From Rubrobacter xylanophilus (lineage in GTDB: Bacteria; Actinomycetota; Rubrobacteria; Rubrobacterales; Rubrobacteraceae), in assembly GCF_007164525.1 (NCBI RefSeq), contig NZ_AP019791.1, forward strand, positions 1,227,501-1,291,500: DNA of 64,000 nt. Direction: 5' to 3'. The translations under genes and the position numbers were made by a program. The notes under the pieces are model-generated. The model saw nothing but the letters and a program-made list of their open reading frames with translations, made no database searches and was not told where the DNA came from. Positions 33,647 through 51,013 of this stretch are shown in pieces; position 1 is the first letter of the stretch; each line of letters opens with the position of its first letter.

Positions 33647-33835
33647 CTAGCAGCAGTAGCTGTTGAAGCTCCCGGTCTTCGCGCATCCGGGCGTACAGAG
33701 GGAGTAGCTCGTGATCTGCGGCTCCACGTCCCCGCTGCCCTTGCTTACCTGGATGTCCAGATCGAAGAGCTCCCCGGCATCGGCGCTGCCCGCGGTATCC
33801 CGATTGAGGGCCTTGCTCTCATAAGCTACAGTCAT
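33647..33835 (-). CDS. lanA: Epidermin/gallidermin-type lantibiotic precursor LanA
   Basis: 62 residues. Leader of 40 residues with the class I motif FDLDIQV at 24-30, ending in VEPQ. Core of 22 residues: ITSYSLCTPGC, then AKTGSFNSYCC. From memory it matches gallidermin at 19 of 22 positions and mutacin 1140 at 18 of 22. All ring residues are kept: Ser3-Cys7, Thr8-Cys11, Ser16-Cys21 and the Ser19/Cys22 AviCys pair; Thr14 should become Dhb. Thr2 and Ser5 are extra dehydratable residues. ATG at 33835 with GGAAGGAGG upstream; the longer open frame from 33955 crosses the promoter and is rejected. Confidence 0.96.
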   Translation of the reverse strand: MTVAYESKALNRDTAGSADAGELFDLDIQVSKGSGDVEPQITSYSLCTPGCAKTGSFNSYCC

Positions 33836-36668: not shown

Positions 36669-37508
36669 TCATGTCACGTCCCTACCCTTGAGGAGCAGCG
36701 CGGAGAGTATCATAAACGCTACGGCGTAGACCCCGAGCGTGATGACCGCTCTCGAGGGCTCGACTGCCTCGCCGGCGGTTCCGCCGAAGCCCACGGGAAG
36801 CGCCCCGAACGACTCGGCGAGATCTATGGAGTTCTTGAAGGGTAGCAACTTGCCTACATCTTCGACCGTCTCGCTCTGAGCAGAAAGCCCCACGAAGATG
36901 CTCTCCAGCACCAGGAGGTAGACGAGCCCGAGCCCGATGGCCAAAGCCGTGCCGCGCAAGAGGGTGGCGAGAAACACTCCCAGCGCCGCGAAGGTTCCGA
37001 GGATGAGCCAGCCCGCTCCGAAGCCTTTGAGGAACTCCTGTGCGGAGGGCCACTCGACGCTCTCTTTCTCCAGGCCCGCAACCACGTAGCTGGAGAGGGC
37101 GCCGACGGCCATGATAGCTGCGGTGAGGATCAGCAAGGTCAGAGCCAGCGCGAAGACCTCGCCGAAAAAGAGTTTGAGCCTGCCCGGTCTCTGGGTGAGG
37201 GTGACCTTGAGGGTGTCCCAGCCGTACTCGCTGCCCACGGAGAGGGCTCCCAGGATCAGGGCCAGAGCGCTGCCGAAGTTGGCGAAGCTGGCGAGCACGG
37301 TCGGTAGCATGTCCTCCGGCAAGAGGGAGCGCAGGATGGCGTCCCTGGCCTCCGGGGGCACCCCGGCGTCCTCCGGGGAGTTTACGGTGAAGGTGTAGAC
37401 GAAGAGGTAGCTGAAGAGCACCACGGCCGCCGCGAAGATCAGGGCCACGACCCACGTCGCGGGGCGCTTGCGCAGCTTCAGCAACTCCGCCGCAAAGCTC
37501 CTCGCCAT
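36669..37508 (-). CDS. ABC-2 type transporter permease
   Basis: 279 residues with six hydrophobic segments (for example VVALIFAAAVVLFSYLFVY, ALALTLLILTAAIMAVGAL and FMILSALLLKG). Topology is that of ABC-2 permeases of bacitracin/lantibiotic-type exporters. Its start touches the stop of the ATPase gene (37508), giving a tightly coupled ATPase-permease pair. Substrate unknown; the location inside the RiPP region suggests peptide export or resistance. Confidence 0.85.
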   Translation of the reverse strand: MARSFAAELLKLRKRPATWVVALIFAAAVVLFSYLFVYTFTVNSPEDAGVPPEARDAILRSLLPEDMLPTVLASFANFGSALALILGALSVGSEYGWDTLKVTLTQRPGRLKLFFGEVFALALTLLILTAAIMAVGALSSYVVAGLEKESVEWPSAQEFLKGFGAGWLILGTFAALGVFLATLLRGTALAIGLGLVYLLVLESIFVGLSAQSETVEDVGKLLPFKNSIDLAESFGALPVGFGGTAGEAVEPSRAVITLGVYAVAFMILSALLLKGRDVT

Positions 37509-38428
37509 CAGACCGCCTCCCCGCCGGTGAGCTCCAGGAAGACCTCTTCGAGGGACTGCCCCGCCGGGCGCATCTCGCTCACCCGCAGCCCCGCGCTGAC
37601 GAGCTTGGCGTTGATCTCGGCCGCACGCTCCGGGTCGGTGACGAGATGGAGTATCCCGTCCGACGCTCGGACCTCCTCGACCCCAGCGAGCCGCTTCGCT
37701 ATCTCCAGAGCCTCCTCGACCGGCTCTGCCCGGATGGCGAGGCCCTGCCGACCTCGCAGCTCTGCCACGGTGCCTTCAGCGACGAGCTTTCCCTTCTGGA
37801 TAACGCCTACCCGGTTGCATATCTGCTCTACTTCGCCCAGCAGGTGGCTGGAGAGCAGGACCGTTCGCTCGCCCCGACCAAGCTCTCTTATGAGGCCGCG
37901 CATGTCGGCCATACCCCTGGGGTCCAGCCCATTCGTCGGCTCGTCGAGTATCAGGAGATCGGGGTCCTTCAAGAGCGCCGCCGCCACGCCCAGCCGCTGC
38001 TTCATGCCCAATGAGTACTTCTTGTACTTATCCCTGGCCCTCCCGGAGAGCTCTACCTGGGAGAGAGCTTCGTCGATGCGGACGCGCGGAGCGCCGGAGT
38101 AGCGCGCCATCACCTTCAGGTTGTCGCGTCCGGAGAGGTAGGGGTAGAAGGCCGGGGACTCGACCAAAGAGCCCACCTTCGAGAGGCCGGCTTCGGATCC
38201 CGGACTTTCCCCAAGAACCTCAGCGGTGCCGGAAGTGGGCCGGATCAGACCCAAGAGCATCCGCAAGGTCGTGGTCTTGCCCGCACCGTTGGGGCCCAAG
38301 AAGCCGTAGACCTCCCCGCGCCTCACGCTGAGGTCCAACGAGTCGACGGCGGTGATCCCCGAACCATAGCGTTTGGTTAAGCCGTCGGTCTTCACGGCAA
38401 GGCTTTGCCTTATGGCATTCTCGTTCAC
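37508..38428 (-). CDS. ABC transporter ATP-binding protein (drug/peptide efflux type)
   Basis: 306 residues. Walker A FLGPNGAGKTT (about 43-53), signature YSLGMKQRLGVA, Walker B LLILDEPTNGLDP, and a C-terminal extension of the CcmA/BcrA type (VAELRGRQGLAIRAEPVEEA). GTG start at 38428 with GGAAGGAG seven bases upstream; a longer frame from 38653 carries only Arg-rich nonsense. Partner of the permease at 36669. Confidence 0.9.
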   Translation of the reverse strand: MNENAIRQSLAVKTDGLTKRYGSGITAVDSLDLSVRRGEVYGFLGPNGAGKTTTLRMLLGLIRPTSGTAEVLGESPGSEAGLSKVGSLVESPAFYPYLSGRDNLKVMARYSGAPRVRIDEALSQVELSGRARDKYKKYSLGMKQRLGVAAALLKDPDLLILDEPTNGLDPRGMADMRGLIRELGRGERTVLLSSHLLGEVEQICNRVGVIQKGKLVAEGTVAELRGRQGLAIRAEPVEEALEIAKRLAGVEEVRASDGILHLVTDPERAAEINAKLVSAGLRVSEMRPAGQSLEEVFLELTGGEAV

Positions 38429-38520
38429 TGCCAGACTCCTTCCTACCTGTACCACTGAGAGCCTTCGGTTTATAGAGGACCGAGCTCTGTTCATCCTTTG
38501 ATCCAACCTGCCAGATCCCT

Positions 38521-39279
38521 TTACTTCGGCGGCATGCGCATCGCGGCGTCGAGACGGATAACCTCGCCGTTCAGCATCTCGTTCTCGATAACGTGTCGTA
38601 CGAGCGCGGCGTACTCTTCCGAACACCCTGGCCTCGGAGGAAACGTAGCCCACTTAGGGAGTTCCTCCAGTAGGTGGGCACGGGCACCTTCGGGGAGGCT
38701 GGCCAGCATCGGGGTGTCGAAGATACCGGGGGCGATGGTCATCACGCGGATTCCATGACGGGCGAGTTCCCTGGCTATGGGTAGCGTCATTCCAACTATG
38801 CCTGCTTTGGAGGCGGAGTAGGCGGCCTGCCCCACTTGGCCATCGAACACCGCGACGGACGCGGTGTTGACGATGACTCCCCGTTCGCCGCTTTCCGACG
38901 GCTCATTCTTTCGCATCGCCAACGCAGCGAGCCTGATCACGTTGAAGGTGCCAACCAGGTTGACCCGCACGACCTCCGAGAAAGAGTCGAGGGAGTGTGC
39001 GCCTTCCCGGCCGAGCACCTTCTCGACCACGGTTACGCCGGCGCAGTTGATCGCACCATGTAACCCGCCGAACTCCTCCACGGCGGCACCTACGGCGGCT
39101 TGCACGCCCTCCTCGTCGGTCACATCGGTCCGCACGAAGCGGATGTTTTCGTGTGTGGGTGTGCCTCTGCGGCCAGCGATCACGACGCGGGCTCCCGCCC
39201 CTGCAAGAATGCGCACGGTAGCCTCGCCGAGACCGGAGCTACCACCAGTAACGAGGAAGACGCGTTCCTCTACTCGCAT
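38521..39279 (-). CDS. Short-chain dehydrogenase/reductase
   Basis: 252 residues. NAD(P) loop TGGSSGLG (11-18), NAG-type motif INCAG, catalytic Ser141, Tyr154 and Lys158 (YSASKAG). Closest in style to type II 3-hydroxyacyl-CoA dehydrogenases (17-beta-HSD10-like), which act on beta-hydroxyacyl substrates. It could serve as a ketoreductase for the KASIII-type pathway at 41890 or reduce an N-terminal 2-oxoacyl group as ElxO does in epilancin. But a MerR-type promoter lies 235 bases upstream, so it may instead belong with the ABC genes. Confidence 0.85.
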
Positions 39280-39698
39280 CGGAGCCGCACCACCAAGATG
39301 ATGTTGGTAGACATGCGCTCGATGCTTATGGCTGCGCTCACCTTTCCCGCTCCTTCTTTTCCCCGTCGATGGTTTTCCCGGTGTGCCCAGGCTCATTCGG
39401 CAGTTCCGGCCGCTGAGATTAGTAGGCGGTCTTGGGCATCTCCGCCGTGGGCTTAACTCGCCTGACTTCAATAGCTTGCTCCCATCCAAATCCTCTCTTG
39501 ACTCCTGGCCGTGAGCATAGACTTTGCCCTACGGACAAGGTCAAGGCAGAGGGCTCTTATCCTGGGCCTGAGGACGTGCCACCCCGAAGCTGCGAGGGCG
39601 GTGTGCAGAATGTGCTCTTGCGGGTTTCGCTTCTTTCGGTATCGATCGGGCACTGGTTGCTTTGTTCGTCACCGGGGTTCAGTCAGCTCTCACCGTCG
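39280..39698. other. Non-coding gap with a MerR-type promoter
   Basis: 419 bases between the SDR and MDR genes. A 61-codon minus-strand frame (39468-39653) shows no domain. The only clear signal is the MerR-like operator at 39514-39544. A 227-base untranslated leader would result, which may hide further control; I see no strong hairpin. Confidence 0.5.
39514..39544 (-). promoter_or_regulatory. Second MerR-type operator-promoter
   Basis: Minus strand TTGACC (39544-39539), 19-bp spacer, TATGCT (39519-39514). The 31-bp site shares about 21 bases, including the first nine, with the operator of the merR gene at 36361-36391. It would drive the SDR and ABC genes. Confidence 0.55.
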
Positions 39699-40799
39699 TC
39701 ACTCCTCAGCTACTATCGCTCGTCGGCCAACCCTCACTTCATTGGTCCCTTTGAGGTTCGTAGATGTTTGCTGCCTTCTCGCAGGGTGTTGCGTAAGGGA
39801 TCGTCTTTCTCCCTCTGCAAGCCGGTCGGTAGCCAACACCACTTTGCCGGTGATTCGGCGCGCAGCCTGGGTCTTCAAGGCATCTGCCGCCTGCTCCAAT
39901 GGGAAGGTGTGGGAGGGGCGAGGATCAACTACTCCCTCGGAATACCACCCGAGTGCCTCGGCAATAGAGGCCCGTACCTTCTCGGGATCTCTCATGAGAT
40001 AGCCGCCCCAATCCGTGCCGAGGACTGTGCAACTTCTCAGCAGGATCCGCCAAGCCGGTGCCTCGGGTATTCGGCCGCCGGCGAAGCCGATGGTGAGAAT
40101 CCTGCCCTCCCATGTCACGCAGCGCAAGGACTCGTCGAAGGCGTCGCCGCCAACCGGATCAATGACTACGTCGGCACCTCGTCCGTCGGTAATTTCGAGG
40201 ACCCTGTCTCGGATGTTATCCCGCCCATAGTAGATCGTGTGGTCGGCCCCGCGCTCGGCGGCTACCTCTAGGTGCGCGGGACTACCCGCTGTGGCGATCA
40301 CGGTGGCTCCCAACCTCTTGCCGATTTCCACGGCTGCGCGACCGACGTTGCCAGCGGCCCCATGGACCACAAGGACCTCTCCAGGCTCTAGACGTGCCCT
40401 ATACACAAGGGCGAGGTGGGCGGTGCCGTACGCGACGGGGAAAGCGGCAGCGGTCGTAAAATCCATCCCTTCTGGGATCGGAAGGACATGGGTCGAGGGA
40501 ACAACCACCTCCTCGGCGTAGCCGCCGTGCTCCAGTGCTGCCATAACCCGGTCGCCGGGTTTCAGTTCGTCTACGTCCTCGCCGATCCTCGTGGCCACGC
40601 CGGAGACCTCGAAGCCCGGGCTGAAAGGGAATGGGGGCTTAAGCTGATAGCGCCCCGCAATCATGAGATTGTCGGCGAAGTTCACGCCAGAAGCGTGTAC
40701 CGAGATTCGTACGTCTCGGGCGCCGCCGGACATCGAATCCACCTTTTCGAAGGAAAGATTCGAGGGATCCCCCCACCGTCTGCAAAGCATCGCCCTCAT
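39699..40799 (-). CDS. MDR-superfamily NADPH:quinone oxidoreductase / enoyl-reductase-like
   Basis: 366 residues. Zinc-free medium-chain reductase: SGVNFADNLMIAGRYQLKPPFPFSPGFEVSG, cofactor loop VHGAAGNVGRAAVEIGKRLGA, VVIDPVGGDAFD. This family includes quinone reductases and the enoylreductase domains of polyketide synthases. A 40-residue non-conserved tail follows ITGKVVLAT. Start at MRAMLCRRWGDPSNLSF; AGGAGG lies 11 bases upstream. Probably the last gene of the second RiPP operon, where it could saturate an acyl chain. Confidence 0.85.
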   Translation of the reverse strand: MRAMLCRRWGDPSNLSFEKVDSMSGGARDVRISVHASGVNFADNLMIAGRYQLKPPFPFSPGFEVSGVATRIGEDVDELKPGDRVMAALEHGGYAEEVVVPSTHVLPIPEGMDFTTAAAFPVAYGTAHLALVYRARLEPGEVLVVHGAAGNVGRAAVEIGKRLGATVIATAGSPAHLEVAAERGADHTIYYGRDNIRDRVLEITDGRGADVVIDPVGGDAFDESLRCVTWEGRILTIGFAGGRIPEAPAWRILLRSCTVLGTDWGGYLMRDPEKVRASIAEALGWYSEGVVDPRPSHTFPLEQAADALKTQAARRITGKVVLATDRLAEGERRSLTQHPARRQQTSTNLKGTNEVRVGRRAIVAEE

Positions 40800-40884
40800 C
40801 TTGCCATCGTCCTCCTGTTGCTCCCTACCGGGAATCGTTGCTTGCATGTTTTGACGAACCTGCACAAAGCAGCATTGGATATGT

Positions 40885-41721
40885 TTACGAAAGTACCCGG
40901 CAGGCAACGAGTCGCATCGGCCAATTCTGGGTACCCGCCGCGGAAGCTGTCTCATCGTCCATGTAAATGTCTTCACTGTCCATGATCTCGAAACCTAACC
41001 CTGTCAGTTCGGCACCTAGCTCGTTTGCGTCGAGCACAGTGCAAGCGGTGTTTGATAGAAAGCGCCTGGTCTGACCTAATGAGGAGACGAGCTCCGTATA
41101 CAGATTAGTCACCTGGTAGTTCTCGTCCGGGTTCCGACGACACCCTAGCAGCATGAAACCGCGCATTCCTGGTGCCCCGGTGGGAATGATGAAGTGGCTC
41201 TCGCTTGGTCGCTCGCCTGGGATGGTCGGAAGGTAATCGAAGAGCAGAACTCCCCCAGGATGAAGGTGTCGCCGCGCGGTCGCAAGAACGAGCCTGCGCT
41301 CCTCCGTCGCCAACAGCAACGGGATGGTCAGCCCACCGATAACTGTGTAGTCGAAGGTACGTTCTAGATCTAGGGTTCTCGCATCACCTTCGATGAGGGT
41401 GATGTTAGGGTCGATTTTCGGGTGGATAGATCTAATTTTGCTCCGCCCTCTGTGCAGCATGTCCTTCGACAGATCAACTCCGGTAACGCCATGGCCTGCG
41501 CAGGCGAACGGAATCGCCGTGCGCCCGCTCCCGCACCCCAAGTCGAGAACTTCCTGGCGCCCTTCCCTCATATGTTCCAGATACCATCCGATGTCGCCTT
41601 CGAACCGCTGAAAGGAATCGGCATAAAACGAGGCGTATACTCCTTCGAACGGTGGCAGTATCTCGGTCTTCGGTAGATCTAACTCTTTGATTTGCCGAAA
41701 GATCCCAAAAAACTGTTCCAC
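40885..41721 (-). CDS. SAM-dependent methyltransferase
   Basis: About 278 residues. Class I methyltransferase fold with the SAM loop VLDLGCGSGRTAIPFACAG, then VTGVDLSKDML, EGDARTLDL and a proline-rich acceptor strand LLFDYLPTIPG. GTG at 41721 chosen because GGGAG lies seven bases upstream; a TTG two codons earlier is also possible. Substrate unknown; a peptide N-terminus or the acyl product of the neighbouring ketosynthase are candidates. Confidence 0.82.
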   Translation of the reverse strand: MEQFFGIFRQIKELDLPKTEILPPFEGVYASFYADSFQRFEGDIGWYLEHMREGRQEVLDLGCGSGRTAIPFACAGHGVTGVDLSKDMLHRGRSKIRSIHPKIDPNITLIEGDARTLDLERTFDYTVIGGLTIPLLLATEERRLVLATARRHLHPGGVLLFDYLPTIPGERPSESHFIIPTGAPGMRGFMLLGCRRNPDENYQVTNLYTELVSSLGQTRRFLSNTACTVLDANELGAELTGLGFEIMDSEDIYMDDETASAAGTQNWPMRLVACRVLS

Positions 41722-41889
41722 TCCCAAACTCCCTGCTAGCTAACCTCGCCTGTGAGTTGCTTCGAAGGTTCGAACGACGACCGCTACTGCCCCACTACGC
41801 TCAATTGGACACCAAACTAACGAAGCACGCATAGGAAGGGTACCGCGTGTTGGTCCCAAGCTTCCTTCGCTGCGGTTCACGATCCAGAT

Positions 41890-42966
41890 CTAGAGTGCCG
41901 GATCAAAGAAATCCCCGGGCTCGCACCACCGCATCAATGTTGCCCCGTAGTTGAGGCCGGAGCCGAATGCAGCGGTTACGATAAGGCTGCCCGCTCTCAG
42001 ATAACCTTGCTCAGCGGCCTCCCAGACGGCCAGCGGCACCGAAGCGCTCGCCGTGTTCCCGAACTTCTCGCAATTGGTGAACGTTTTTTCGATAGGCTGG
42101 CCCAAAGCCTCCATTATCTTGTGCACAATCTTCTGGTTGGCTTGATGTGTGATAAAGAGGTCGATGTCGTCGAGTTCCATACCGTTTTCCTCTACGAGTT
42201 CCCGGATCTGTTGCGGAACTCGGGTTAGGGCAAACTCTCGCACCTCCCTCCCGGTCATCGTGAAGTACTGCTCGCGGCGAGCGAGGACCTCCGCGGACAC
42301 GGGCAGCTCTCTCCCACCCGCGGGCACGTAAGCCGAGTAGTAACCCGCAGGATGACTTCGGAGCGATGTAGAAACAATCCCGGTGCCAGAACGGCAGGAT
42401 CGTAGAAGATAGCAAGCAGCGCCGTCGCCCATGATCACGCAGGTTCGCCGATCTTCCCAGTCCACAATCTTCGAACTCACGTCCGCTAAAACTATCGCGA
42501 CGGTACGGTATCGCCCAGATTGCACGTACTGGGTGCCGACGTCGAGAGCAAAGACTCCACCTGGACACCCGCCACTGTGCACGTCGAATCCCGCGGCATC
42601 CTCTAACCCGGCTTTTCGCAGTATCGCAGAGGCGAGGGACGGAGTGAGATGGTCGGGCGTATAAGTCCCGCAAATGAGAAGATCGACGTCGCTCAAGCCG
42701 ATTCTCGCGCTCCGGCATGCTTCCTGCAACGCTTGCAGTCCGAGGTCCGAGGAGGTCTCATCGTCGGCCGCGATGTAGCGCGTGTGGATGCCCAAATGAT
42801 GCTTGATCCACCCATCGCTGGTGTCGACCAGCTGTGCCAACTCGTCGTTAGAGACGACCCGTCGCGGGACGTAGGCGCCCAACGCAAAAATTCCGACTCC
42901 CTGGCTTTTACCCAAGTCTCGGTTCTGATCGGCGTAAGCGGCTTCTGCCGTCGGGTTACGGTTCAT
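41890..42966 (-). CDS. Beta-ketoacyl-ACP synthase III (FabH-like)
   Basis: 358 residues with the full FabH triad: Cys134 (SGGCPGGVFAL), His274 (ITHQANQKI) and Asn304 (EKFGNTASAS). N-terminal motif SDGWIKHHLGIHTRYI matches the family. Starts carbon chains by condensing an acyl-CoA with malonyl-ACP, or catalyses C-O/C-N acyl transfer in specialised relatives. No fab operon or ACP gene is near, so it is a dedicated secondary-metabolism enzyme, most simply one that supplies or attaches an acyl group to the second RiPP. Confidence 0.9.
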   Translation of the reverse strand: MNRNPTAEAAYADQNRDLGKSQGVGIFALGAYVPRRVVSNDELAQLVDTSDGWIKHHLGIHTRYIAADDETSSDLGLQALQEACRSARIGLSDVDLLICGTYTPDHLTPSLASAILRKAGLEDAAGFDVHSGGCPGGVFALDVGTQYVQSGRYRTVAIVLADVSSKIVDWEDRRTCVIMGDGAACYLLRSCRSGTGIVSTSLRSHPAGYYSAYVPAGGRELPVSAEVLARREQYFTMTGREVREFALTRVPQQIRELVEENGMELDDIDLFITHQANQKIVHKIMEALGQPIEKTFTNCEKFGNTASASVPLAVWEAAEQGYLRAGSLIVTAAFGSGLNYGATLMRWCEPGDFFDPAL

Positions 42967-42986
42967 AGCTAGCCCTCCCGTCAGAG

Positions 42987-43424
42987 TCACACTGGTATGC
43001 AAATGTCGATGAGGTTCTCAAGCTCTCCGATCTGATATGACATCTTTAGGCGCTCCATAACCCCTGCGCGCTTGATGACGATTCCGTCCCGGAAGCCGTA
43101 GAAGGCGATTCCCCTGACGCGGTAGAAGCTTGGCTCTCGGTTTGCTAGCACCCAGGAGCCAGACATCTCGTACGTCCAGACGACGTAGTTACCTTCGGAA
43201 ATGGTGTCTAGGATACGTACTTCGTGATCCGGGGAGAGCTCAAATATGCGCCGAAGCCTGTCCTGTAAATCCTCCGGACTCGGGCCCTCATCTTCGTAAC
43301 GCATATCGTCGACATGTACCGAGTCGTCGGAGAAGTCGGCGAACGCCTCGACATCATGGTCGTTCCAAACCCGCTCGACGTACTTGGCCAGAACTTCTCT
43401 GACCGAGGTCTCGGCCTCACTCAT
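42987..43424 (-). CDS. SnoaL-like (NTF2-fold) protein, second of a pair
   Basis: 145 residues, pattern VREVLAKYVERVWNDHDVEAFADFSDDSVHVDD, then DHEVRILDTISEGNYVVWTYEMSGSW, typical of SnoaL/limonene-epoxide-hydrolase cone folds that bind small hydrophobic ligands or polyketides. The catalytic role is unknown. Overlaps the preceding SnoaL gene by four bases. Confidence 0.75.
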   Translation of the reverse strand: MSEAETSVREVLAKYVERVWNDHDVEAFADFSDDSVHVDDMRYEDEGPSPEDLQDRLRRIFELSPDHEVRILDTISEGNYVVWTYEMSGSWVLANREPSFYRVRGIAFYGFRDGIVIKRAGVMERLKMSYQIGELENLIDICIPV

Positions 43425-43873
43425 CGCAGCTGGTATCCCATCTGCATCAGAAGAGACGCCACATCGGAATGGTTTATCTCTTCCTTAATGAGAGAGCCCT
43501 CAAACTTGCTGATTGTGATACCGATGAGGACAACGTCTCGGAACTCCGGCCAGTTCATCGCCGCCTTCCGCGCAACCCCGACCATATCTTCCGCGCTGCG
43601 CAATTTACCGAGTATCCTCCATTGCCAAGCCACCCGGGAGTCCTCACTGATCGCCTGAACGACCTCGAGCCTCGCCTCCTCGAACATGCCCAGCAACTTC
43701 TCTATGTTTTGTCGCAACTGATCGATGCCGTTGAAGACCGGCTCATCGTACAGATTGAGCATCTTCGCCTCTGGATGGAAGAACTCTCCTATTGATTCGA
43801 ACCGTTGCTGGTTCCAGACCACGTCGACGTACTCGTTGATTAACTGGACCCTGGTTGTCTTGTTCTCAGACAT
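43421..43873 (-). CDS. SnoaL-like (NTF2-fold) protein, first of a pair
   Basis: 150 residues: INEYVDVVWNQQRFESIGEFFHPEAKM, then ARLEVVQAISEDSRVAWQWRILGKLR. Same fold family as the next gene but with low identity between them. Tandem pairs of this kind can form heteromers. Overlaps the stop of the GNAT gene by eight bases, so it is part of the operon. Confidence 0.75.
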   Translation of the reverse strand: MSENKTTRVQLINEYVDVVWNQQRFESIGEFFHPEAKMLNLYDEPVFNGIDQLRQNIEKLLGMFEEARLEVVQAISEDSRVAWQWRILGKLRSAEDMVGVARKAAMNWPEFRDVVLIGITISKFEGSLIKEEINHSDVASLLMQMGYQLR

Positions 43874-44456
43874 GTTCCTCTCTATCTAGCTTGAAGGGCA
43901 ACTCCCATTCGCTCTTAAGCACGGAGCCGAGGCGAGCGTCTTTGACCCCTGAAGCCATGGGGATGTGTTGGCGGAGGAACCCCTCCCACTTAAAACCCAA
44001 ACGTTCCGCCATGCGTAGCGAAGCCGTGTTATCCGTAGCTATGGGTCCCCACAACTTTTGGGCAGGTGTCTCAGAGAAGAGGACCTCGATCGCAAGCGCG
44101 AAAACCTCCGTCCCTACACCCTTAGCGCCATCAGGCCGACGACCGACCAAGATCTCTCCCTCCCACAGGTAATGGGGTGGGCCGTTCTTTGACAGGAAGT
44201 TTACGAATGCCACCTGCTCGCCGACCGCGTCGTCAGCTACGAGGGCTAGAAAGTAAAAAGGCCCTGGGTCTTCGTCCGAGGGGGTTAGCAAGGCGCGCAC
44301 GTCCATCTGCTCCGCTTCTTCTGGGTCTGCCCTAGCTATGTACTCTGGGCTTAACTCGGGATCGAATATCCAACCGCCTATCAAGTCTATGTCTCGCTCC
44401 TGGATGCGCCGGATGCCGAATCTCGGTCCTCGAAGTAGATAGCCTTCCTGTGTCAC
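43866..44456 (-). CDS. GNAT N-acyltransferase, RimJ/RimL type
   Basis: 196 residues. Substrate-side motif FGIRRIQERDIDLIGGWIFDP and the CoA-binding pattern GRRPDGAKGVGTEVFALAI followed by DNTASLRMAERLGFKWEGFLR identify RimJ/RimL-type acetyltransferases. Starts at GTG just after the LanD stop; GAAAGGG upstream. Likely acylates an amine of the peptide. A GNAT that joins a polyketide acyl chain to a RiPP is known from goadvionin, which makes its position beside a ketosynthase notable. Confidence 0.8.
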   Translation of the reverse strand: MTQEGYLLRGPRFGIRRIQERDIDLIGGWIFDPELSPEYIARADPEEAEQMDVRALLTPSDEDPGPFYFLALVADDAVGEQVAFVNFLSKNGPPHYLWEGEILVGRRPDGAKGVGTEVFALAIEVLFSETPAQKLWGPIATDNTASLRMAERLGFKWEGFLRQHIPMASGVKDARLGSVLKSEWELPFKLDREEHV

Positions 44457-44460
44457 GGTG

Positions 44461-45069
44461 TCACCCTTTCTCTTTTGCTCGCTTAACACGGTCGGTTGAG
44501 GAATTAGGGGAAACAGCACCTAATCGCCACAACGTTTGCAGCAATTTCGCGAAAGGGACTGGTGATCCTTCCTCTAATCGCCCCGTCGTGACGCTCATCC
44601 CGCTCACCGTATCGAGTACATGATGGCCGTGTTCGCGTAGCCTGTGGATCATCCACTTGCTCTGGGCCTTGTTGAGCGAAGCCCCACCCGCAGAAGGCGC
44701 TACCACGACCGGAGCCTCGGTTGTTGCCACAACGGCCGTAGGAATGTCGTCACTCAATCCATGGGCTATCCTCGCGCAGAAATCCAGGCTAGCCGGAAAG
44801 ACGATTACGACTTCGGACCATTCTGCGAGAAGGAGGTGTTCAGCGCCGGCTGATTGATCCTCCTGCCAGCCGGGGCCGGAGACCGGATTGCCGGAGATGG
44901 CGCTTAGCGCAGTCGGGGTTACGAACTTCTTTGCGCCCGCCGTGATAGCGAGTCGGATCTCGCAATCGTAGCTTTGCTTCAGTAAAGCGATCCAGCTAGG
45001 CAGGAACGCTGTACCAAGTGCACCCGTAGCCAAGAACAACAGTCGCCGGAAGCCAAGATCCTCAGACAC
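44461..45069 (-). CDS. Second LanD-like flavoprotein cysteine decarboxylase
   Basis: 202 residues, HFCD family but only distantly like the LanD at 28218. Active-site His78 (GAEHLLLAEW), PASLDF at 92-97, and PSAGGASLNKAQSKW for the substrate clamp. Predicted to decarboxylate the C-terminal Cys53 of the precursor at 47023 to form an AviCys/AviMeCys ring. Overlaps the HopA1-like gene by eight bases, so it is in the same operon. Confidence 0.85.
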   Translation of the reverse strand: MSEDLGFRRLLFLATGALGTAFLPSWIALLKQSYDCEIRLAITAGAKKFVTPTALSAISGNPVSGPGWQEDQSAGAEHLLLAEWSEVVIVFPASLDFCARIAHGLSDDIPTAVVATTEAPVVVAPSAGGASLNKAQSKWMIHRLREHGHHVLDTVSGMSVTTGRLEEGSPVPFAKLLQTLWRLGAVSPNSSTDRVKRAKEKG

Positions 45070-45982
45070 GGCGCGCTTCTACCTCCAGGGATTCTGGACG
45101 TCCGTCCAGCCTCACCCTCTGGCGTTCGAGCAGGGCCTGAAGGTGGCGCCATGCGGTAGCTTTGGTGCATGGTCCCGGAACCTCTTCGCGTATGGCCATC
45201 CATATCTCTTCCGCGCAGGTCAGCCCATGGCTAGCTAGTGGGCGATCGGCCGGGGCAAGCGCGACGGCAACCCCTCGGCTCTCCGGTAGCGCAAATCCGG
45301 GAGTAAGTTCGTCTCTGACGTCATGAGGAAGCACCTGGTCGACCAGACTCGCCACTTCGGGCACCGAGGATCTAGGAACGTAGACGACGCAACAGTCCGG
45401 TCTGCGCGCAGCGTCCCTGTTGTTAACTACCTTTGCTTGGTATAGGACCCCCGAGCCACGAAGTGCGGCCATGAGGGTATGCCAACCATCTTCTAGCCCG
45501 TCGGGAGATAGACTGATGTAGACGCGCCCATCCAGAGGGACGGAGTTGGGTGGGGCGCCGTCCAGTACAACCCACCCAGGAAGTGCTCGGCGTCGCAAGG
45601 CGGTAAGCGCAACCTCATACTCACCCTCGCTACTGCTGCGCTTACCGGAAACGGGACGACAGCAACTCTCCGGTGCCGAGATGAGCATCCCATCGTTTCG
45701 TTGCAGCACCGCACGCCCGCCCTTGCGTCCAACCAACCTCCATCGGGATCGCCAGCGTCGCCAAGCAAGGTACGGGCGGCACAACTCATCGACAAGGGCT
45801 TCGTCTTCGCGGGCGGCAAGCTCGTCTTCGGCAACCGTACCGTGCAGGTGAATTGCACGGTACAACCCTAGTACTTTGGCAGCGTCATCGGCGTCTCGTG
45901 TCCGGGCTTCCTCAGGGACACACCGCAGCAAGACTTCGTCGTAGTATGAATACAAGGCACGCTGCAAATCCACGCTGCTCAC
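45062..45982 (-). CDS. HopA1-like protein (class V lanthipeptide / thioamitide dehydration partner)
   Basis: 306 residues. Contains the HopA1 effector-family pattern: an N-terminal helical part (LYSYYDEVLLRCVPEEARTRD), then VYISLSPDGLEDGWHTLMAALRGSGVLYQAKVVNN, DCCVVYVPRSSV and a C-terminal HGLTCAEEIWMAI. Homologues are LxmY in lexapeptide and TvaD in thioviridamide clusters, where they work with a kinase homologue and a LanD. Start GTG at 45982 overlaps the APH-like stop as GTGA. Family assignment is from pattern memory. Confidence 0.75.
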   Translation of the reverse strand: MSSVDLQRALYSYYDEVLLRCVPEEARTRDADDAAKVLGLYRAIHLHGTVAEDELAAREDEALVDELCRPYLAWRRWRSRWRLVGRKGGRAVLQRNDGMLISAPESCCRPVSGKRSSSEGEYEVALTALRRRALPGWVVLDGAPPNSVPLDGRVYISLSPDGLEDGWHTLMAALRGSGVLYQAKVVNNRDAARRPDCCVVYVPRSSVPEVASLVDQVLPHDVRDELTPGFALPESRGVAVALAPADRPLASHGLTCAEEIWMAIREEVPGPCTKATAWRHLQALLERQRVRLDGRPESLEVEARRV

Positions 45983-46947
45983 AATCCCTTCGAACTCACC
46001 GTCAGCCAGCGGTCGAGGAGCTCCGGATGCCACAGCAATCTACTTGAGGTTTTGACGAGAAGCCTTGGTATACGGTCGAACGCCCCGGTCGACTCAACGT
46101 GGACAAAGGCTCTACACAGCAAGCTCAAGCCAGATCCTCGTGCGATGAGGCGCGCATCGGGACAATGCCCCGTGATGTGCCCGTAGTGGTGCAGCAATGC
46201 CTTGGCTGCTTGAAGGGCAGCCCGGCCGTGCTCACCGATCACACTCCACGGGATTTTTTTCCTGCCATATGATGGAGCAGCCACCGTCTGGTAAAGGAGA
46301 CCTCCAAGGAGGCTAGAAAAGTCGGCTTCGGGACGAGCTAGCCCAGCGTTTTCCCAGTCGATGAGGCGCACGAAGTTGCGATTAGGCTCGACGAGTACGT
46401 TGTCAGGCTTGGCGTCCCCATGTACAAAGGCATCACCCGCAGCCAACTCCTCGGCGGTCCGCCTTAACTCTTCCGCTATTCCGAGGCTGTGCACATGGGC
46501 AAGCAACTCCTCCAACCCGGTGCTCAGTAAGTGCCACCGTTCAGCCTCGACAGGCCATGTGGGGAAGACCTCTAGACGGGCTGGCTCGAGATCGTAGTCC
46601 GGCTCGGCAGTGTGAATCGCTGCGAAAATTTCGGCCAACGGGCTCATTACGGTTGCGAGCGCTTGCCAGTCGAGCGCACGATCAAAGAGTGCGAGCCAGT
46701 CGGTGCGGTCTGGCAGCAAGAGCGCTTCCATACTGCTAACAACAGGCTGGTCCGCTACCGGCATTCCCGTTCGAGTTCGCAGTTCGGAGGCGAGTCCTTG
46801 CAGTAGGTTCTCAGTGGCTATGTCGCGGCGCTGCATGTCGAAAACGTTGGTACGAGGCTCAGGCCGCCTCTTCTCGATCAAAGCAGCTCCGCCCCTCGTC
46901 ACCCGACGCAGGAAGGAATGACCGGTGATGGTAGTTTGACGAGACAT
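45979..46947 (-). CDS. APH/kinase-fold protein (LxmK/TvaC-like)
   Basis: 322 residues. Kinase-fold signature FVHGDAKPDNVLV (His176, Asp178, Asn183) and IDWENAG (Asp197). The N-lobe is short and lacks a clear Gly-rich loop. In class V lanthipeptides and thioamitides such a protein is thought to phosphorylate Ser/Thr before elimination. Directly follows the hairpin behind the precursor gene. A plain aminoglycoside resistance kinase is less likely because of the HopA1 and LanD partners. Confidence 0.78.
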   Translation of the reverse strand: MSRQTTITGHSFLRRVTRGGAALIEKRRPEPRTNVFDMQRRDIATENLLQGLASELRTRTGMPVADQPVVSSMEALLLPDRTDWLALFDRALDWQALATVMSPLAEIFAAIHTAEPDYDLEPARLEVFPTWPVEAERWHLLSTGLEELLAHVHSLGIAEELRRTAEELAAGDAFVHGDAKPDNVLVEPNRNFVRLIDWENAGLARPEADFSSLLGGLLYQTVAAPSYGRKKIPWSVIGEHGRAALQAAKALLHHYGHITGHCPDARLIARGSGLSLLCRAFVHVESTGAFDRIPRLLVKTSSRLLWHPELLDRWLTVSSKGL

Positions 46948-46972
46948 GACCCCTTGCTGGTTCGTGTAGCTC

Positions 46973-47017
46973 GTGGATGAGGCGTGGCCGAACGTTGCCC
47001 GGCCACGCCTCGTCCAC
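46973..47017 (-). terminator. Hairpin between second precursor and its modification genes
   Basis: 18-bp stem with one wobble pair (arms 46973-46990 and 47000-47017) and a 9-base loop, starting a few bases after the precursor stop. No T-run, so partial termination or RNA protection is likely, as at 33582-33615. Confidence 0.65.
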
Positions 47018-47022
47018 CTAAA

Positions 47023-47184
47023 TCAGCACTTGACGATGAGCGTGCCGATCGTGCCCTTCATCATCGGGCCGGACTGATCCAGAAGCCATACCGGCGCCTC
47101 CTCGCCGTTCAGCTCCTCCTGCTCGTCAAGCTCCTCGCGCTCCGCGAGCTCGCCGAAGAGAGCATCCAGACTCTCGATAACCAC
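47023..47184 (-). CDS. Precursor peptide of a second, AviMeCys-type RiPP
   Basis: 53 residues beginning at GTG with AGGAGG six bases upstream. Strongly acidic leader (MVIESLDALFGELAEREELD, then EQEELNGEEAPVWLLDQ) and a C-terminal region SGPMMKGTIGTLIVKC. The last six residues, Thr-Leu-Ile-Val-Lys-Cys, have the same spacing as the AviMeCys ring segment of thioamitides (for example Thr-Val-Ala-Phe-His-Cys in thioalbamide). Ser38, Thr45 and Thr48 can be dehydrated. A hairpin follows and then the kinase, HopA1 and LanD genes. The leader cleavage site is not known. Confidence 0.8.
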   Translation of the reverse strand: MVIESLDALFGELAEREELDEQEELNGEEAPVWLLDQSGPMMKGTIGTLIVKC

Positions 47185-47301
47185 GATGTCCCTCCTTTCC
47201 TCTTGTTCGCCGACAACGTGTCCCGCACCATACCGTCAATCGTCGACATGCGCGTCACTCCTTTGGAGTGATTCTCATCACCCTACCGGGGTAATGGCGC
47301 T

Positions 47302-47904
47302 TCAACCTGAAAGCTCCCGTCGGCTTTCAACACCCAGCTTCCTTAAGACCTTTTTGACGTGGGTCTTAACCGTGTTTAGGCTCAAGCAAAGTTTGTGCGA
47401 AATCTCCCTATTGGTGCGTCCTTCCATGAGCAGGGACAACACTTCTCGCTCCCTGTCTGTCAGTCCGGCCCCCTCAATCTTCGCCCTCAATCCCTCTGGG
47501 CCATTCTCTTGTATGGGTCCCAGGATCCAGTCTCTCTGCCCTTCGTGAATCCTGACCGCCACCTCGGGAAGCCTCTCGCCGCACCCGAGCCCTTTGTGTA
47601 GGTAACCGTCAGCTCCTACCAGATCCGCCGCGATGATGGTCCTCTGTGAACTGCACGCCGCGTACACCAAAACCCGAGGCGGACACGGTAGCGATTTCAC
47701 CTCCCTGCAAGCTTCTAGTGCGCTTGCTTCTCCTTCCAGATCAAAGTCGAGGATTACTAAGTCAGGGCGCAGTTCTTCGATTCGGCTAAGAATCTCTTCC
47801 GCGCTTTGGATTTCCGCCACTACCTCTATCTCTTCTGTCTGTTCCAACATGATCCGCGCGCCGAGCCGTCCAGCGGGGTAGCTACCTCCCAAAAGAACTC
47901 TCAT
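47302..47904 (-). CDS. Atypical NarL/LuxR-family regulator
   Basis: 200 residues. Receiver domain plus LuxR HTH (LTDREREVLSLLMEGRTNREISHKLCLSLNTVKTHV). The phosphorylation Asp53 (VILDFDL) and the Lys near LHKG remain, but the acidic pair normally at residues 6 to 8 is replaced (MRVLLGGSYP instead of xLLxDDHP). Such receivers usually do not switch by phosphorylation. The start is MRVLLGG at 47904. First gene after promoter copy 2; no cognate kinase is adjacent, so it may respond to a ligand such as the peptide product. Confidence 0.85.
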   Translation of the reverse strand: MRVLLGGSYPAGRLGARIMLEQTEEIEVVAEIQSAEEILSRIEELRPDLVILDFDLEGEASALEACREVKSLPCPPRVLVYAACSSQRTIIAADLVGADGYLHKGLGCGERLPEVAVRIHEGQRDWILGPIQENGPEGLRAKIEGAGLTDREREVLSLLMEGRTNREISHKLCLSLNTVKTHVKKVLRKLGVESRRELSG

Positions 47905-48237
47905 TTGTCGCCTCTCTTCCCCTGCCAGGCCTCCGCCGGTAGAAGGAAAGTCAAGCAATCCTTATCGAAACCCAGTCCCAGACGCTTCTCACGTCCGGCC
48001 AAATGTAAGCCTTTCTCCACTCATCGAACTCCTTCTTTCTTCAACTCGCTATAGCCCGACGAGCCACACGGTATTCGAGTTCCGGGACTACCGCCGCCGA
48101 TTTTAGAGATTGTTTAGAGAACCTTTGGAGAACCTTTACGGAATGGTCAAATCCTATAGGCCCGGTTGGGTCAGCGCCCAGGGACCGGGATAAGTGGTGC
48201 ACGTAGGAATATTGCGCGAAGCCCGGATCGAAAGAGT
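47905..48237. other. Gap between luxR-type gene and lanK, with promoter copy 2
   Basis: 333 bases. The outer part is the 95-bp promoter module (48046-48140). Between it and the regulator gene lies a minute 11-codon frame (47989-48024, ATG with AAGGAG before it) at the position lanA takes in copy 1. Nothing else recognisable. Confidence 0.55.
48046..48140 (-). promoter_or_regulatory. Promoter module of the second operon, copy 2 of the 95-bp repeat
   Basis: Eight differences from copy 1 (33856-33950). The 11-bp-spaced boxes (TTTAGA at 48102 and 48113, TTTGGA at 48124, TTTACG at 48135) and the GAATAC -10 (48076-48071) are untouched. Drives transcription toward the LuxR-type regulator and the second precursor. 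Confidence 0.75.
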
Positions 48238-49767
48238 TTAGTCCGTTTGGTAGCGAGAGCCCGGCTCCGGGGCCACGGAGGCAAAGGAGCCAGGAGGCCT
48301 TATCGGTGCGGAGCCTCTCAAGGGCAGGCGGAAGGTCACCTCAAGCCCTCCCTCAGGGAGGTTGCGAGCCGAGATCTCGCCATCCTGGGTTTCTACTAGC
48401 AGCTTCGAGATGTAGAGACCGAGCCCGAGCGTCTTCTTGGTGTTGGGATCGGCAGCATTGTTCGTCCCCCGGTACGCCTTGTCGAAGATGCGCGGCACCT
48501 CGTGTTCGGGGACGCCGGGTCCGGTGTCCCGGACCGCCACACACAGACTACCCGCGTCCCACGAGTATGCTACGGTTACTTTGCCTCCGGTCGGCGTGTA
48601 GCGAAGCGCATTCTCGAAGAGGTTGTCGAGCATCTGCTCCAGACGATGCGGGTCTATGTAAACCTCTCCAGACCTCTCACCGTTCCCGCTCGGCGGCTCA
48701 AGCTCGAACCGCATGCCGTGCTCGCTGGCACGAAGCCCGTAGGCCGCCCCTTTGCGGGCGAACTCCCTAGTAAGATCTGTCGGTTGCGGCTGTATCGAGA
48801 AGTTGGTCTGCTCGAGGTTCACGACGAGCATTATGTCGTCCAGCAGCTTCATGATCCGGTGGCTGCTCTCCTCCATGACCCGCAGGTAGCGCTCCAGCCT
48901 CTGCGCCCTCTTGTCCTCTCCGGCCCGCATGAGGCCCTCCACGTGTCCCTGGATGACGGTGACCGGCGTCCTGAGGTCGTGGGATAGGGCCGCCACCATC
49001 TCGCGCACCTCTTCGGCTTGGCGCCACTCCCGGGTCAGAGACTCCTGAAGCTCCTTACGCAGGTCCTCGAAGGCCCTACAGAGCTCTCCGAGTTCGTCCG
49101 GCTTGTCGTAACCGATGCTGAAGTCCAGATCCCTGTTCCGGATCTTCTCCACCGCGGCCCTGAGCTCTCCGACGGGCTTGTTGATCCTGCGCCCGAGCCT
49201 CCACGCGAAGACGAGGGTGGCTAAGATCAGGAAGACCACCGGCAGCAGGGCGGCCAGCGCGACCTGCGAGATCAAAGCAACACGCTGCGTGGTGCTGAGC
49301 GCCGAGTTGTCCAGTGGGTACTTGAGCAACAGGTAGCCGCTCACCTCCCCATCGTCGACCAGTGCGAGGGTTTCCTCCCGGTAGTCGTCGCTGACCAGGA
49401 TCTCATTCACCCGCTCGGCAAGCTCTCTGGCCGTGAGGGGCAGGGAGAAGCTTGCCGCGTCCCCGCTCACGAAGTCGCCTCGCCGGTCGAGGACCACGTA
49501 ATCGACGCCGTCGGCGGCATCCACCCTCCGCTCCCACTTCGAGCGTGCCGCCTCATCGTTAGCCAGCAGGGGTTCGGAGTGGCTCCTGGCGTACCGTTGC
49601 AGGTCGTCCACCTGTTGCTCGACCTTGGGAAGGCTCTCGCCCTGCTGCCGGAGCGAGTAGAAGATCACACCCACGGCGATCGCTGAGGCTAGCCCGGTAA
49701 CCACTATGATGCCCACGAAGCTTAGGACGAACAGGCGCCTGAAACCCTGATTACGCACGGCGCGCAA
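48238..49767 (-). CDS. lanK: Sensor histidine kinase, LanK-like
   Basis: 509 residues. First membrane helix (about 11-35), an extracytoplasmic sensor region of about 125 residues, second helix (about 165-188), HAMP, and HisKA with His263 (AALSHDLRTPVTVIQGH). The HATPase has an N-box in MLDNLFENALRYT and DTGPGVPEHEVPRIF. Expected to sense the mature lantibiotic or membrane stress. The gene begins six bases after the lanR stop. Confidence 0.92.
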   Translation of the reverse strand: MRAVRNQGFRRLFVLSFVGIIVVTGLASAIAVGVIFYSLRQQGESLPKVEQQVDDLQRYARSHSEPLLANDEAARSKWERRVDAADGVDYVVLDRRGDFVSGDAASFSLPLTARELAERVNEILVSDDYREETLALVDDGEVSGYLLLKYPLDNSALSTTQRVALISQVALAALLPVVFLILATLVFAWRLGRRINKPVGELRAAVEKIRNRDLDFSIGYDKPDELGELCRAFEDLRKELQESLTREWRQAEEVREMVAALSHDLRTPVTVIQGHVEGLMRAGEDKRAQRLERYLRVMEESSHRIMKLLDDIMLVVNLEQTNFSIQPQPTDLTREFARKGAAYGLRASEHGMRFELEPPSGNGERSGEVYIDPHRLEQMLDNLFENALRYTPTGGKVTVAYSWDAGSLCVAVRDTGPGVPEHEVPRIFDKAYRGTNNAADPNTKKTLGLGLYISKLLVETQDGEISARNLPEGGLEVTFRLPLRGSAPIRPPGSFASVAPEPGSRYQTD

Positions 49768-49773
49768 AACACC

Positions 49774-50484
49774 TCACCCGGTCGTGGGATCCCACTTGTA
49801 TCCCACACCCCACACCGTAGATATGTAGGTGTTGTTCGGGTCGGCAGCTTCGAGTTTCTTGCGTATCCTCTTGACGTGCTCGGTGACCGTGTCCGTGTAC
49901 CCGGTAGCTTCGAGGTCCCAGATCCTGCTGTAAAGCCGCTCCCTGGAGAAGACCTGACGCGGGTGCAGCGCGAGTAGCTCGACGATCTCGAACTCCTTGC
50001 GGGTCATGGGTATGGGCGCCCCCAGGTAGCGCACTTCGTGCGCGTCCAGGTCCACGGTGAGTCCCCCGAATGAAAGTACGGCGAGCTTCTCTCGCTCGGG
50101 CCTGGAGCGCCGCTGTCGCCTCAGGTGGGCTTCGACGCGGGCCAATAGCTCCTTGATGCTGAACGGCTTCATGACGTAGTCGTCGGCGCCCATGCTGAAG
50201 CCCAACACCTTGTCCACGTCGCTCTGCTTGGCGGAGAGAAGGAGTATTGGTATGTCCATGTCCTCCCTCAGGACGCGGCAGACGGTGTAGCCGTCGACCT
50301 TCGGCATCATGATGTCCAGGATCACGAGGTCCGGATCCTTCCGGCGGGCCACCTCCAGGGCCCTCTCGCCGTCCGTTGCGGTCACGACGGCGTAGCCCTC
50401 GTCCTCCAGGGCGTCTTTTATGAAGTCGACGATCCTATCCTCGTCGTCCACAAGAAGTATGGTCGCTCCGGAATCCATCCGCAT
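49774..50484 (-). CDS. lanR: OmpR-family response regulator, LanR-like
   Basis: 236 residues. Acidic pair Asp13/Asp14, phosphorylated Asp57 (VILDIMM), conserved Lys in YVMKPFSIKEL, and a winged-helix DNA-binding domain (TEHVKRIRKKLEAADPNNTYISTVWGVGYKW). All active residues are present. Probable binder of the 11-bp-spaced repeats in both copies of the promoter module. Confidence 0.92.
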   Translation of the reverse strand: MRMDSGATILLVDDEDRIVDFIKDALEDEGYAVVTATDGERALEVARRKDPDLVILDIMMPKVDGYTVCRVLREDMDIPILLLSAKQSDVDKVLGFSMGADDYVMKPFSIKELLARVEAHLRRQRRSRPEREKLAVLSFGGLTVDLDAHEVRYLGAPIPMTRKEFEIVELLALHPRQVFSRERLYSRIWDLEATGYTDTVTEHVKRIRKKLEAADPNNTYISTVWGVGYKWDPTTG

Positions 50485-50486
50485 GA

Positions 50487-51010
50487 TTATATCCTTAGGT
50501 TTCTTTGCTCATGAGCTGTCCTGCTCCATAGGACGGCGGCCCAGCCCGCGACGGCGTACGCCAGTGGCACCGCAAAGAGCAAGGGATTGTGAAGCTCCGA
50601 AGGTGTTTCGGCTGGAGCGGCGAACGGGAGATCTCCGCCCGCACCGGCGGGCAGGAAGATCTGGCCGCCAATGCGGGCTCCGATCAGTAGCGCGGCCAGA
50701 AGGACCTTCACTGCAACAATGGTGACCAAAATGCGGACAATGGGACTCAAGCTGGTCTCGGCGGTTTCTTGTTGCCCATCCGACCTCGCGAATCGTCGGA
50801 TGGAGAGACAAGCTGCGCCAAAGTCGACGGTAAAGACCGGTGAGAATAAAGAACCCAGGCCGACACCGAAACCCTGGTTAGGTTTTCCCCGCCGACCAGA
50901 GGGAACGCCCCGGCGGTGAGTACACCCGCCGCGGTCAAGAGACCGATCGCTACCCGGAACTTCGTATCCGTCAAAGCAACCCCGACTTCGTTCTTGAGTT
51001 GGTCGAGCAT
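50487..51010 (-). pseudogene. Small membrane protein with internal -1 frameshift
   Basis: Two frames together make one plausible membrane protein of about 174 residues. The N-terminal part starts MLDQLKNEVGVALTDTKFRV (ATG 51010, touching the lanG end) and hits nonsense after about 60 residues. The C-terminal part (GSLFSPVFTVDFGAACLS, then IVRILVTIVAVKVLLAALLIG and LLFAVPLAYAVAGWAAVLW) is one base behind. The junction lies near the run GGGGAAAAC at about 50886. Could be decay, a sequencing slip or programmed frameshifting. Position between lanG and lanR suggests an extra immunity protein. Confidence 0.6.
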
Positions 51011-51013
51011 CCT

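What the first reader, a model, noticed from the sequence alone, without database searches (positions are those of the whole stretch)
38521..47184. Second RiPP operon with kinase/HopA1/LanD trio and a Thr-x4-Cys precursor
The precursor at 47023 ends Thr-Leu-Ile-Val-Lys-Cys, the ring spacing of thioamitide AviMeCys. APH-like, HopA1-like and LanD-like genes follow in overlapping order, as in class V lanthipeptides and thioamitides. No YcaO/TfuA pair, no LanM/LanKC and no LxmX-like protein were seen, so the product would be AviMeCys-containing but not thioamidated, and differs from known clusters.
Basis: partly seen in the sequence, partly recalled or inferred. Interest (0 to 1): 0.92.

Follow-up and report, generated by a model that had tools for sequence, protein, structure and literature searches.

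The report
Lipoavitide-like AviMeCys peptide gene cluster
This is a gene cluster that very probably makes a small ribosomal peptide with a C-terminal thioether (AviMeCys) ring and a short fatty-acyl cap, a divergent relative of the recently described lipoavitides sitting in a distant actinobacterial lineage; it is real and useful, but its kind is already known.

Summary
A 53-aa ORF (47184-47023, -) ending T-L-I-V-K-C lies 75 bp upstream of overlapping genes for an APH-fold kinase, a HopA1-type lyase and a LanD-type decarboxylase. It is the only one of 555 small ORFs in the window that ends T-x4-C. HMMs confirm all three enzymes. The kinase model's best PDB matches are LxmK (lexapeptide dehydratase) and TvaE, ahead of small-molecule kinases. 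The genome has no YcaO.

The same order (precursor-kinase-HopA1-LanD-GNAT-SnoaL-KAS III...methyltransferase) occurs in Streptomyces sp. G44 and WAC 01529, Prauserella and Phytoactinopolyspora. It matches the logic of lipoavitides (Ren et al. 2024): AviMeCys peptide capped by a KAS III-made acyl group. So this is a divergent lipoavitide-type cluster, apparently acquired horizontally.

Points of interest: Lys replaces the penultimate His; a second SnoaL and a different KAS III and reductase are present; no kinase-fold LanX cyclase was found. A cluster-specific SnoaL follows the kinase/HopA1/LanD trio even where KAS III is missing, making it a candidate AviMeCys cyclase (untested).

The parts
47302..47958 (-). 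LuxR-type response regulator upstream of the precursor (possible cluster regulator)
   Evidence: GerE 8.2e-18, Response_reg 1.8e-10
47023..47184 (-). Precursor peptide; probable core ...K-GTIGTLIVKC, T-x4-C at the C-terminus
   Evidence: relatives end K-[GS]S-[VI]-x-[YW]-T-x3-HC
45979..46947 (-). LanK-type peptide kinase (APH fold), HGDxxxxN and DWE motifs intact
   Evidence: PF01636 1.5e-9; catalytic residues invariant in the 8 aligned kinases; AlphaFold2 model closest to LxmK 9dk2/9dk3; tree
45062..46033 (-). HopA1-type phospho-Thr lyase partner (LanY)
   Evidence: PF17914 1.5e-12
44461..45069 (-). LanD flavoprotein Cys decarboxylase
   Evidence: PF02441 1.1e-15; PDB 7cfu 8e-27; active-site His invariant
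43866..44456 (-). GNAT acyltransferase, predicted to attach the acyl cap
   Evidence: PF13302 8.4e-13; best hit in two Streptomyces genomes is the GNAT of the homologous cluster
43421..43873 (-). SnoaL-like protein S1 (NTF2 fold); family found only in this cluster type
   Evidence: PF07366/PF12680; model pLDDT 93, closest to SnoaL-like cyclases; distribution
42987..43424 (-). SnoaL-like protein S2, shared with Streptomyces sp. HB132
   Evidence: PF12680 9.6e-13; 80 bits to HB132 S2
41890..42966 (-). KAS III (FabH-like), distinct from the genome's housekeeping FabH (34% identical)
   Evidence: PRK09352 9.8e-97
40885..41727 (-). Methyltransferase, daptide-MTase-like (below that family's cut-off)
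   Evidence: PF13649 9.3e-18; NF041820 134 bits, cut-off 175
39699..40796 (-). Zinc-type quinone oxidoreductase / enoyl-reductase-like protein
   Evidence: ADH_zinc_N 8.6e-25; TIGR02824 1.3e-71
38521..39279 (-). SDR ketoreductase (FabG / 3-hydroxyacyl-CoA dehydrogenase-like)
   Evidence: PF00106 3.1e-44; only strong SDR match in two Streptomyces genomes lies 8-9 kb from the homologous cluster
36669..38455 (-). ABC exporter/immunity pair (ATPase 37508-38455, permease 36669-37508), probably belonging to the cluster
   Evidence: ABC_tran 1.3e-28, ABC2_membrane_2 1.3e-9; about 92 bp after the SDR

Best explanation
A lipoavitide-type RiPP cluster. The kinase phosphorylates the two core Thr residues and the HopA1 protein eliminates phosphate to give Dhb. 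LanD oxidatively decarboxylates the C-terminal Cys to an enethiol, which adds to Dhb five residues upstream to close an AviMeCys ring (T-L-I-V-K-C). KAS III condenses a CoA starter with a malonyl- or methylmalonyl-type extender; SDR, possibly a SnoaL, and the enoyl-reductase-like protein process the keto-acyl chain. After leader removal (probably after ...MMK) the GNAT acylates the new N-terminus. The methyltransferase N-methylates an amine, perhaps the ring Lys. Shown: gene content, order, tight linkage, families, homologous clusters. Inferred: every chemical step, cleavage site, acyl identity, methyltransferase target.
For: Families confirmed. Precursor to KAS III is one run with gaps of -55 to +75 bp. 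Same order precursor-K-Y-D-GNAT-SnoaL-KAS III, then methyltransferase, in Streptomyces sp. G44, WAC 01529, Prauserella cavernicola and Phytoactinopolyspora limicola, whose precursors also end T-x4-C after MPxAK. Window kinase groups with this cluster type, apart from thioamitide/class V kinases (99/98 and 94/89). GNAT and SDR pick out the cluster copies in two Streptomyces genomes among 18-25 and 85-106 candidates. KAS III is additional to an intact housekeeping fabH. Published lipoavitides are N-terminally lipidated RiPPs with acyltransferase LpvE and are cited as non-modular fatty acid synthase products; the KAS III and AviMeCys details are recalled from that abstract, which is not held.
Against: Window KAS III does not group with the cluster KAS III of the relatives (AU p = 0.04; long branches). 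Precursor leader similarity is not significant. Whether the relatives are the published lipoavitide clusters, or GNAT is homologous to LpvE, could not be tested. QOR and SDR are more loosely linked (88-419 bp gaps) and SDR has two paralogues elsewhere in the genome. No ACP or extender-loading gene was seen.
Confidence: 0.68

Rival explanations
1. Non-lipidated AviMeCys peptide: K-Y-D make the ring; GNAT only acetylates (N-cap or self-protection), and the KAS III/SDR/QOR genes serve another small molecule or are decaying passengers.
For: KAS III is phylogenetically unlike that of the relatives; SDR and QOR are separated by larger gaps; KAS III-less relatives exist (S. aurantiacus, Virgisporangium, Streptomyces sp. 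HB132).
Against: GNAT, SnoaL and KAS III are translationally coupled or nearly so to the trio; KAS III sits in the same slot in four other genomes; its active-site Cys, His and Asn motifs are intact by inspection.
Confidence: 0.17
2. The SnoaL-like S1 (with S2) is not an acyl-chain dehydratase but the cyclase that guides enethiol addition to Dhb, doing the job of the kinase-fold LanX of class Va lanthipeptides and thioamitides. (Compatible with the best explanation for the rest.)
For: S1-family proteins occur in all four KAS III-containing relatives, in two relatives without KAS III, and in none of the other LanD loci collected; Virgisporangium has a different SnoaL_2 gene beside its kinase. 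No second APH-fold protein found in the window; the next one in the genome is about 56 kb from K. Fold is closest to polyketide cyclases. LanX is needed for correct ring closure in rosins (PMC12291118).
Against: LanX can be too divergent for these searches (my kinase HMM found only one APH protein even in thioamitide-like loci); in rosin assays without RosX the enethiol also reacted non-enzymatically; a dehydratase or isomerase role in acyl synthesis is equally natural for an NTF2 fold.
Confidence: 0.25
3. Ordinary class Va lanthipeptide or thioamitide cluster.
For: Same trio K/Y/D; T-x4-C ring as in thioamitides; LanD nearest to RiPP flavoproteins in PDB.
Against: No YcaO; single Cys, so no Lan ring; kinase tree separates them.
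Confidence: 0.04

Closest known systems
Lipoavitides (Ren et al., Nat Chem 2024, doi 10.1038/s41557-024-01491-3)
   Same: AviMeCys enzymes plus KAS III, tailoring enzymes and a dedicated acyltransferase for an N-terminal acyl cap (lipidation and LpvE; KAS III and the 4-hydroxy-2,4-dimethylpentanoyl group from my own knowledge of the abstract)
   Different: Sequence comparison with the lpv genes was not possible. Against the homologous clusters found here, the window has Lys rather than His before Cys, an extra SnoaL, a different KAS III and reductase, no DUF6624, and lies in a different lineage
Clusters of Streptomyces sp. G44, S. sp. WAC 01529, Prauserella cavernicola, Phytoactinopolyspora limicola
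   Same: Order precursor-K-Y-D-GNAT-SnoaL-KAS III, with a methyltransferase following
   Different: They have an ADH between KAS III and methyltransferase and DUF6624 after it; their K, Y, D and SnoaL are only about 20-40% identical to the window's
Streptomyces sp. HB132 cluster (L061)
   Same: Closest K and Y, and a SnoaL pair orthologous to S1 and S2; closest D in the tree
   Different: No GNAT or KAS III in the held stretch; cluster lies at a contig edge, precursor not seen
Thioamitides (thiostreptamide S4, thioviridamide)
   Same: Kinase/HopA1/LanD and T-x4-C AviMeCys ring (PMC8153245)
   Different: No YcaO; acyl genes instead
Class Va lanthipeptides (lexapeptide, cacaoidin, rosins)
   Same: LanK/LanY/LanD; kinase model closest to LxmK
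   Different: Single Cys, no Lan ring; no LanX found
Lipolanthines (microvionin)
   Same: Lipidated, decarboxylated-Cys RiPP idea
   Different: They use a class III LanKC (PMC12076493 names MicKC); none here

Membership tests
Lipoavitide-type RiPPs | AviMeCys machinery (kinase, HopA1 lyase, LanD) with a T-x4-C precursor | tested here: met
Lipoavitide-type RiPPs | KAS III and tailoring enzymes co-encoded | tested here: met
   distinct from housekeeping fabH
Lipoavitide-type RiPPs | Dedicated acyltransferase (LpvE) | tested here: inconclusive
   GNAT present and best match of the relatives' cluster GNAT; LpvE sequence not available
Lipoavitide-type RiPPs | Precursor leader homology | tested here: inconclusive
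   Shuffles reached the observed score in 9-21% against the four KAS III-containing relatives; shared K-[GS]-[ST]-[VI] and T-x3-[HK]-C pattern only
Lipoavitide-type RiPPs | N-terminal 4-hydroxy-2,4-dimethylpentanoyl or other acyl group in the product | not testable with these tools
   needs mass spectrometry
Thioamitides | YcaO thioamidation enzyme | tested here: not met
   No PF02624 match in the complete genome
Class Va lanthipeptides | Lan/MeLan ring in addition to AviMeCys (two Cys) | tested here: not met
   One Cys in the precursor
Class Va lanthipeptides | LanX kinase-fold cyclase | tested here: inconclusive
   Only one APH-family protein in the window; a divergent LanX could be missed
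Class Va lanthipeptides | NCBIfam LxmK equivalog cut-off | tested here: not met
   27.5 bits against cut-off 315
Lipolanthines | Class III LanKC synthetase | tested here: not met
   No LANC_like domain in any of the cluster proteins; the only one found is in the neighbouring class I operon

The most novel reading that the evidence does not exclude
The SnoaL-like proteins that accompany this kinase/HopA1/LanD clade are a new class of AviMeCys cyclase, replacing the kinase-fold LanX, and the methyltransferase converts the ring Lys (in place of the His found in relatives) into an N-methylated, fixed-charge residue.
Probability: 0.2. Interest if true: 0.78.

Novelty: new variant of a known kind. 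Interest (0 to 1): 0.56.

Why it matters
It extends the RiPP/fatty-acid hybrid (lipoavitide) logic to a lineage far from Streptomyces and gives a divergent, natural variation set: different KAS III, different reductase, Lys-containing ring. Comparing clusters with and without KAS III separates genes that follow the ring machinery (SnoaL) from genes that follow the acyl cap, which makes the open question of who closes the AviMeCys ring without LanX directly testable.

Tried and rejected
Ordinary resistance kinase or CoA-pathway enzyme: rejected. Thioamitide: rejected. Precursor leader homology to relatives: tried, not significant. One clade for cluster KAS III: weakly rejected (p 0.04), long branches, left open. 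LanD Asn-to-Asp in the PASANT-type motif looked like a catalytic loss but relatives vary there too (PATL[DNE]F), so not taken as inactivating. PDB sequence searches for K, Y and S1 gave nothing. Only distant HopA1 relatives in 397 same-phylum genomes (best E 1.1e-9 outside the own genome) and none in 36 same-family genomes. No Rfam RNA in 24-56 kb. Promoter and terminator scans not above chance. The lipoavitide paper itself is not held.
Full report
Observation. On the minus strand, a 53-aa ORF (47184-47023) with a clear ribosome-binding site encodes MVIESLDALFGELAEREELDEQEELNGEEAPVWLLDQSGPMMKGTIGTLIVKC. It is the only one of 555 ORFs of 30-110 aa in the window ending T-x4-C, and it lies in the 354-bp gap between a LuxR-type regulator and the kinase gene. 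The following genes overlap or nearly touch: kinase, HopA1, LanD, GNAT, SnoaL S1, SnoaL S2, KAS III, with gaps of -55 to +20 bp; then methyltransferase, zinc oxidoreductase, SDR and an ABC pair with wider gaps.

Families. Pfam places the first three proteins in APH (PF01636, 1.5e-9), HopA1 (PF17914, 1.5e-12) and Flavoprotein (PF02441, 1.1e-15), and the next in GNAT, SnoaL, SnoaL and ACP_syn_III. NCBIfam gives a weak LxmK match (27.5 bits, far below cut-off), beta-ketoacyl-ACP synthase III above cut-off, a daptide-like methyltransferase below cut-off, a PIG3-type oxidoreductase below cut-off and FabG-like SDR matches. The LanD's best PDB sequence matches are 7cfu (8e-27) and 6jls (1.2e-16), entries that I believe from memory to be thioamitide LanDs, ahead of CoaBC, CypD, MrsD and EpiD. 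An AlphaFold2 model of the kinase (pLDDT 80) is closest to LxmK of the lexapeptide dehydratase (9dk2, 9dk3, 9dk1) and next to TvaE (8jsu), before any antibiotic or choline kinase. HGD, the catalytic-loop Asn and DWE are invariant in the eight aligned kinases, so this is an active-type LanK rather than a LanX, whose characterised member RosX lacks those residues (PMC12291118).

Related clusters. LanD searches of 394 Streptomyces genomes and of the species-level genome collection returned clusters with the order K-Y-D-GNAT-SnoaL-KAS III-ADH-methyltransferase-DUF6624 in Streptomyces sp. G44 and WAC 01529, Prauserella cavernicola and Phytoactinopolyspora limicola (families checked for the two Streptomyces clusters). 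Their precursors end ...MPTAKGSVIYTTMLHC...MPVAKSSVVWTVTAHC...MPVAKSSVTYTVAVHC and ...MPVAKSSITYTIVIHC; the window's ends ...GPMMKGTIGTLIVKC. The pattern (Lys, Gly/Ser, Ser/Thr, Val/Ile, then Thr-x3-His/Lys-Cys) is shared, but leader similarity does not pass a shuffle test. The kinase tree puts the window protein with these clusters and HB132, apart from other kinase/HopA1 systems (99/98 and 94/89). The closest overall relative by K, Y and SnoaL pair is Streptomyces sp. HB132. For GNAT and SDR, the best matches in two Streptomyces genomes are the copies in or beside the homologous cluster, against 18-25 GNAT and 85-106 SDR candidates.

Mechanism. Kinase/HopA1 pairs are the Thr dehydratase of thioamitides and class V lanthipeptides (PMC8153245; PMC12291118); LanD makes the enethiol; addition to Dhb gives AviMeCys. 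Published lipoavitides are N-terminally lipidated RiPPs with acyltransferase LpvE. From my own knowledge of the abstract (paper not held), their cap is a 4-hydroxy-2,4-dimethylpentanoyl group begun by a KAS III from isobutyryl-CoA and methylmalonyl-CoA. The window has KAS III, SDR, SnoaL, enoyl-reductase-like protein and GNAT in the right places, so I infer an acyl-capped AviMeCys peptide. Acyl identity, cleavage site and methyltransferase target are inferences. Masses calculated by hand: core GTIGTLIVKC after two dehydrations and oxidative decarboxylation [M+H]+ 922.55; with the lipoavitide cap 1050.64.

What differs. (a) Penultimate Lys instead of His, with a methyltransferase homologous to the relatives' (168-198 bits) retained; thioamitides bis-methylate His to give a permanent charge (PMC8153245), so Lys N-methylation is a natural but untested guess. 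(b) Two SnoaL proteins. (c) KAS III outside the relatives' clade (AU p 0.04) though in the same slot; long branches prevent a firm claim. (d) A PIG3-type oxidoreductase rather than the relatives' ADH, and no DUF6624. (e) No LanX found, with the caveat that my kinase HMM finds only one APH protein even in thioamitide-like loci.

SnoaL. S1-family proteins occur in all four KAS III-containing relatives, in HB132 and in S. aurantiacus, where no KAS III was found, and in none of the other LanD loci; Virgisporangium has a different SnoaL_2 gene beside its kinase. The S1 model (pLDDT 93) is closest to SnoaL-like polyketide cyclases. So SnoaL follows the ring machinery more closely than the acyl machinery, which raises the possibility that it closes the AviMeCys ring. 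The HB132 cluster lies at a contig edge, so genes may be missing there.

Origin. The region has 57-64% G+C against about 66-72% at the window's left end. HopA1 is absent from the 36 other same-family genomes searched, so horizontal acquisition is likely. The host is a 3.02-Mb, single-contig actinomycete whose name I was not given.

Verdict. Observation confirmed; interpretation partly supported. A divergent lipoavitide-type cluster: new variant of a known kind, interest 0.56.

Noticed in passing
24829-33832 (-): Adjacent class I lanthipeptide operon with an epidermin/gallidermin-like precursor (33647-33832...FDLDIQVSKGSGDVEPQITSYSLCTPGCAKTGSFNSYCC; TIGR03731 2.5e-18), LanB, LanC, LanD, ABC exporter and an S8-like protease. 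The last 16 residues look identical to those of epidermin/gallidermin (recalled), in an actinomycete.
   Followed up: partly
48238-53523 (-): Histidine kinase, response regulator and ABC-2 transporter genes between the cluster and the flank; looks like a lantibiotic-sensing/immunity module that either RiPP operon could use.
   Followed up: no
56065-58677 (-): DUF3987 / NrS-1 polymerase HBD replication-type protein, suggesting a mobile element next to the low-GC RiPP region.
   Followed up: no
G000:C1:1045320-1046081 and 2719967-2720728: Two paralogues of the cluster SDR at 68% and 63% identity elsewhere in the genome; the SDR may have been recruited from the host's acyl-CoA metabolism.
   Followed up: no
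L076 (Streptomyces xanthophaeus NRRL B-5414), 7654-10552 and beyond: Another kinase/HopA1/LanD cluster with a precursor ending TTLSLHC and a methyltransferase 342 bits to that of Streptomyces sp. G44, but no SnoaL or KAS III match.
   Followed up: no
L062 and L072: KAS III-less relatives keep a zinc ADH and DUF6624; the ADH there may be a dehydroamino-acid reductase rather than an acyl enzyme.
   Followed up: no
38300-48300: No sigma-70-like promoter match at all (0 against 3.6 expected in shuffles).
   Followed up: no
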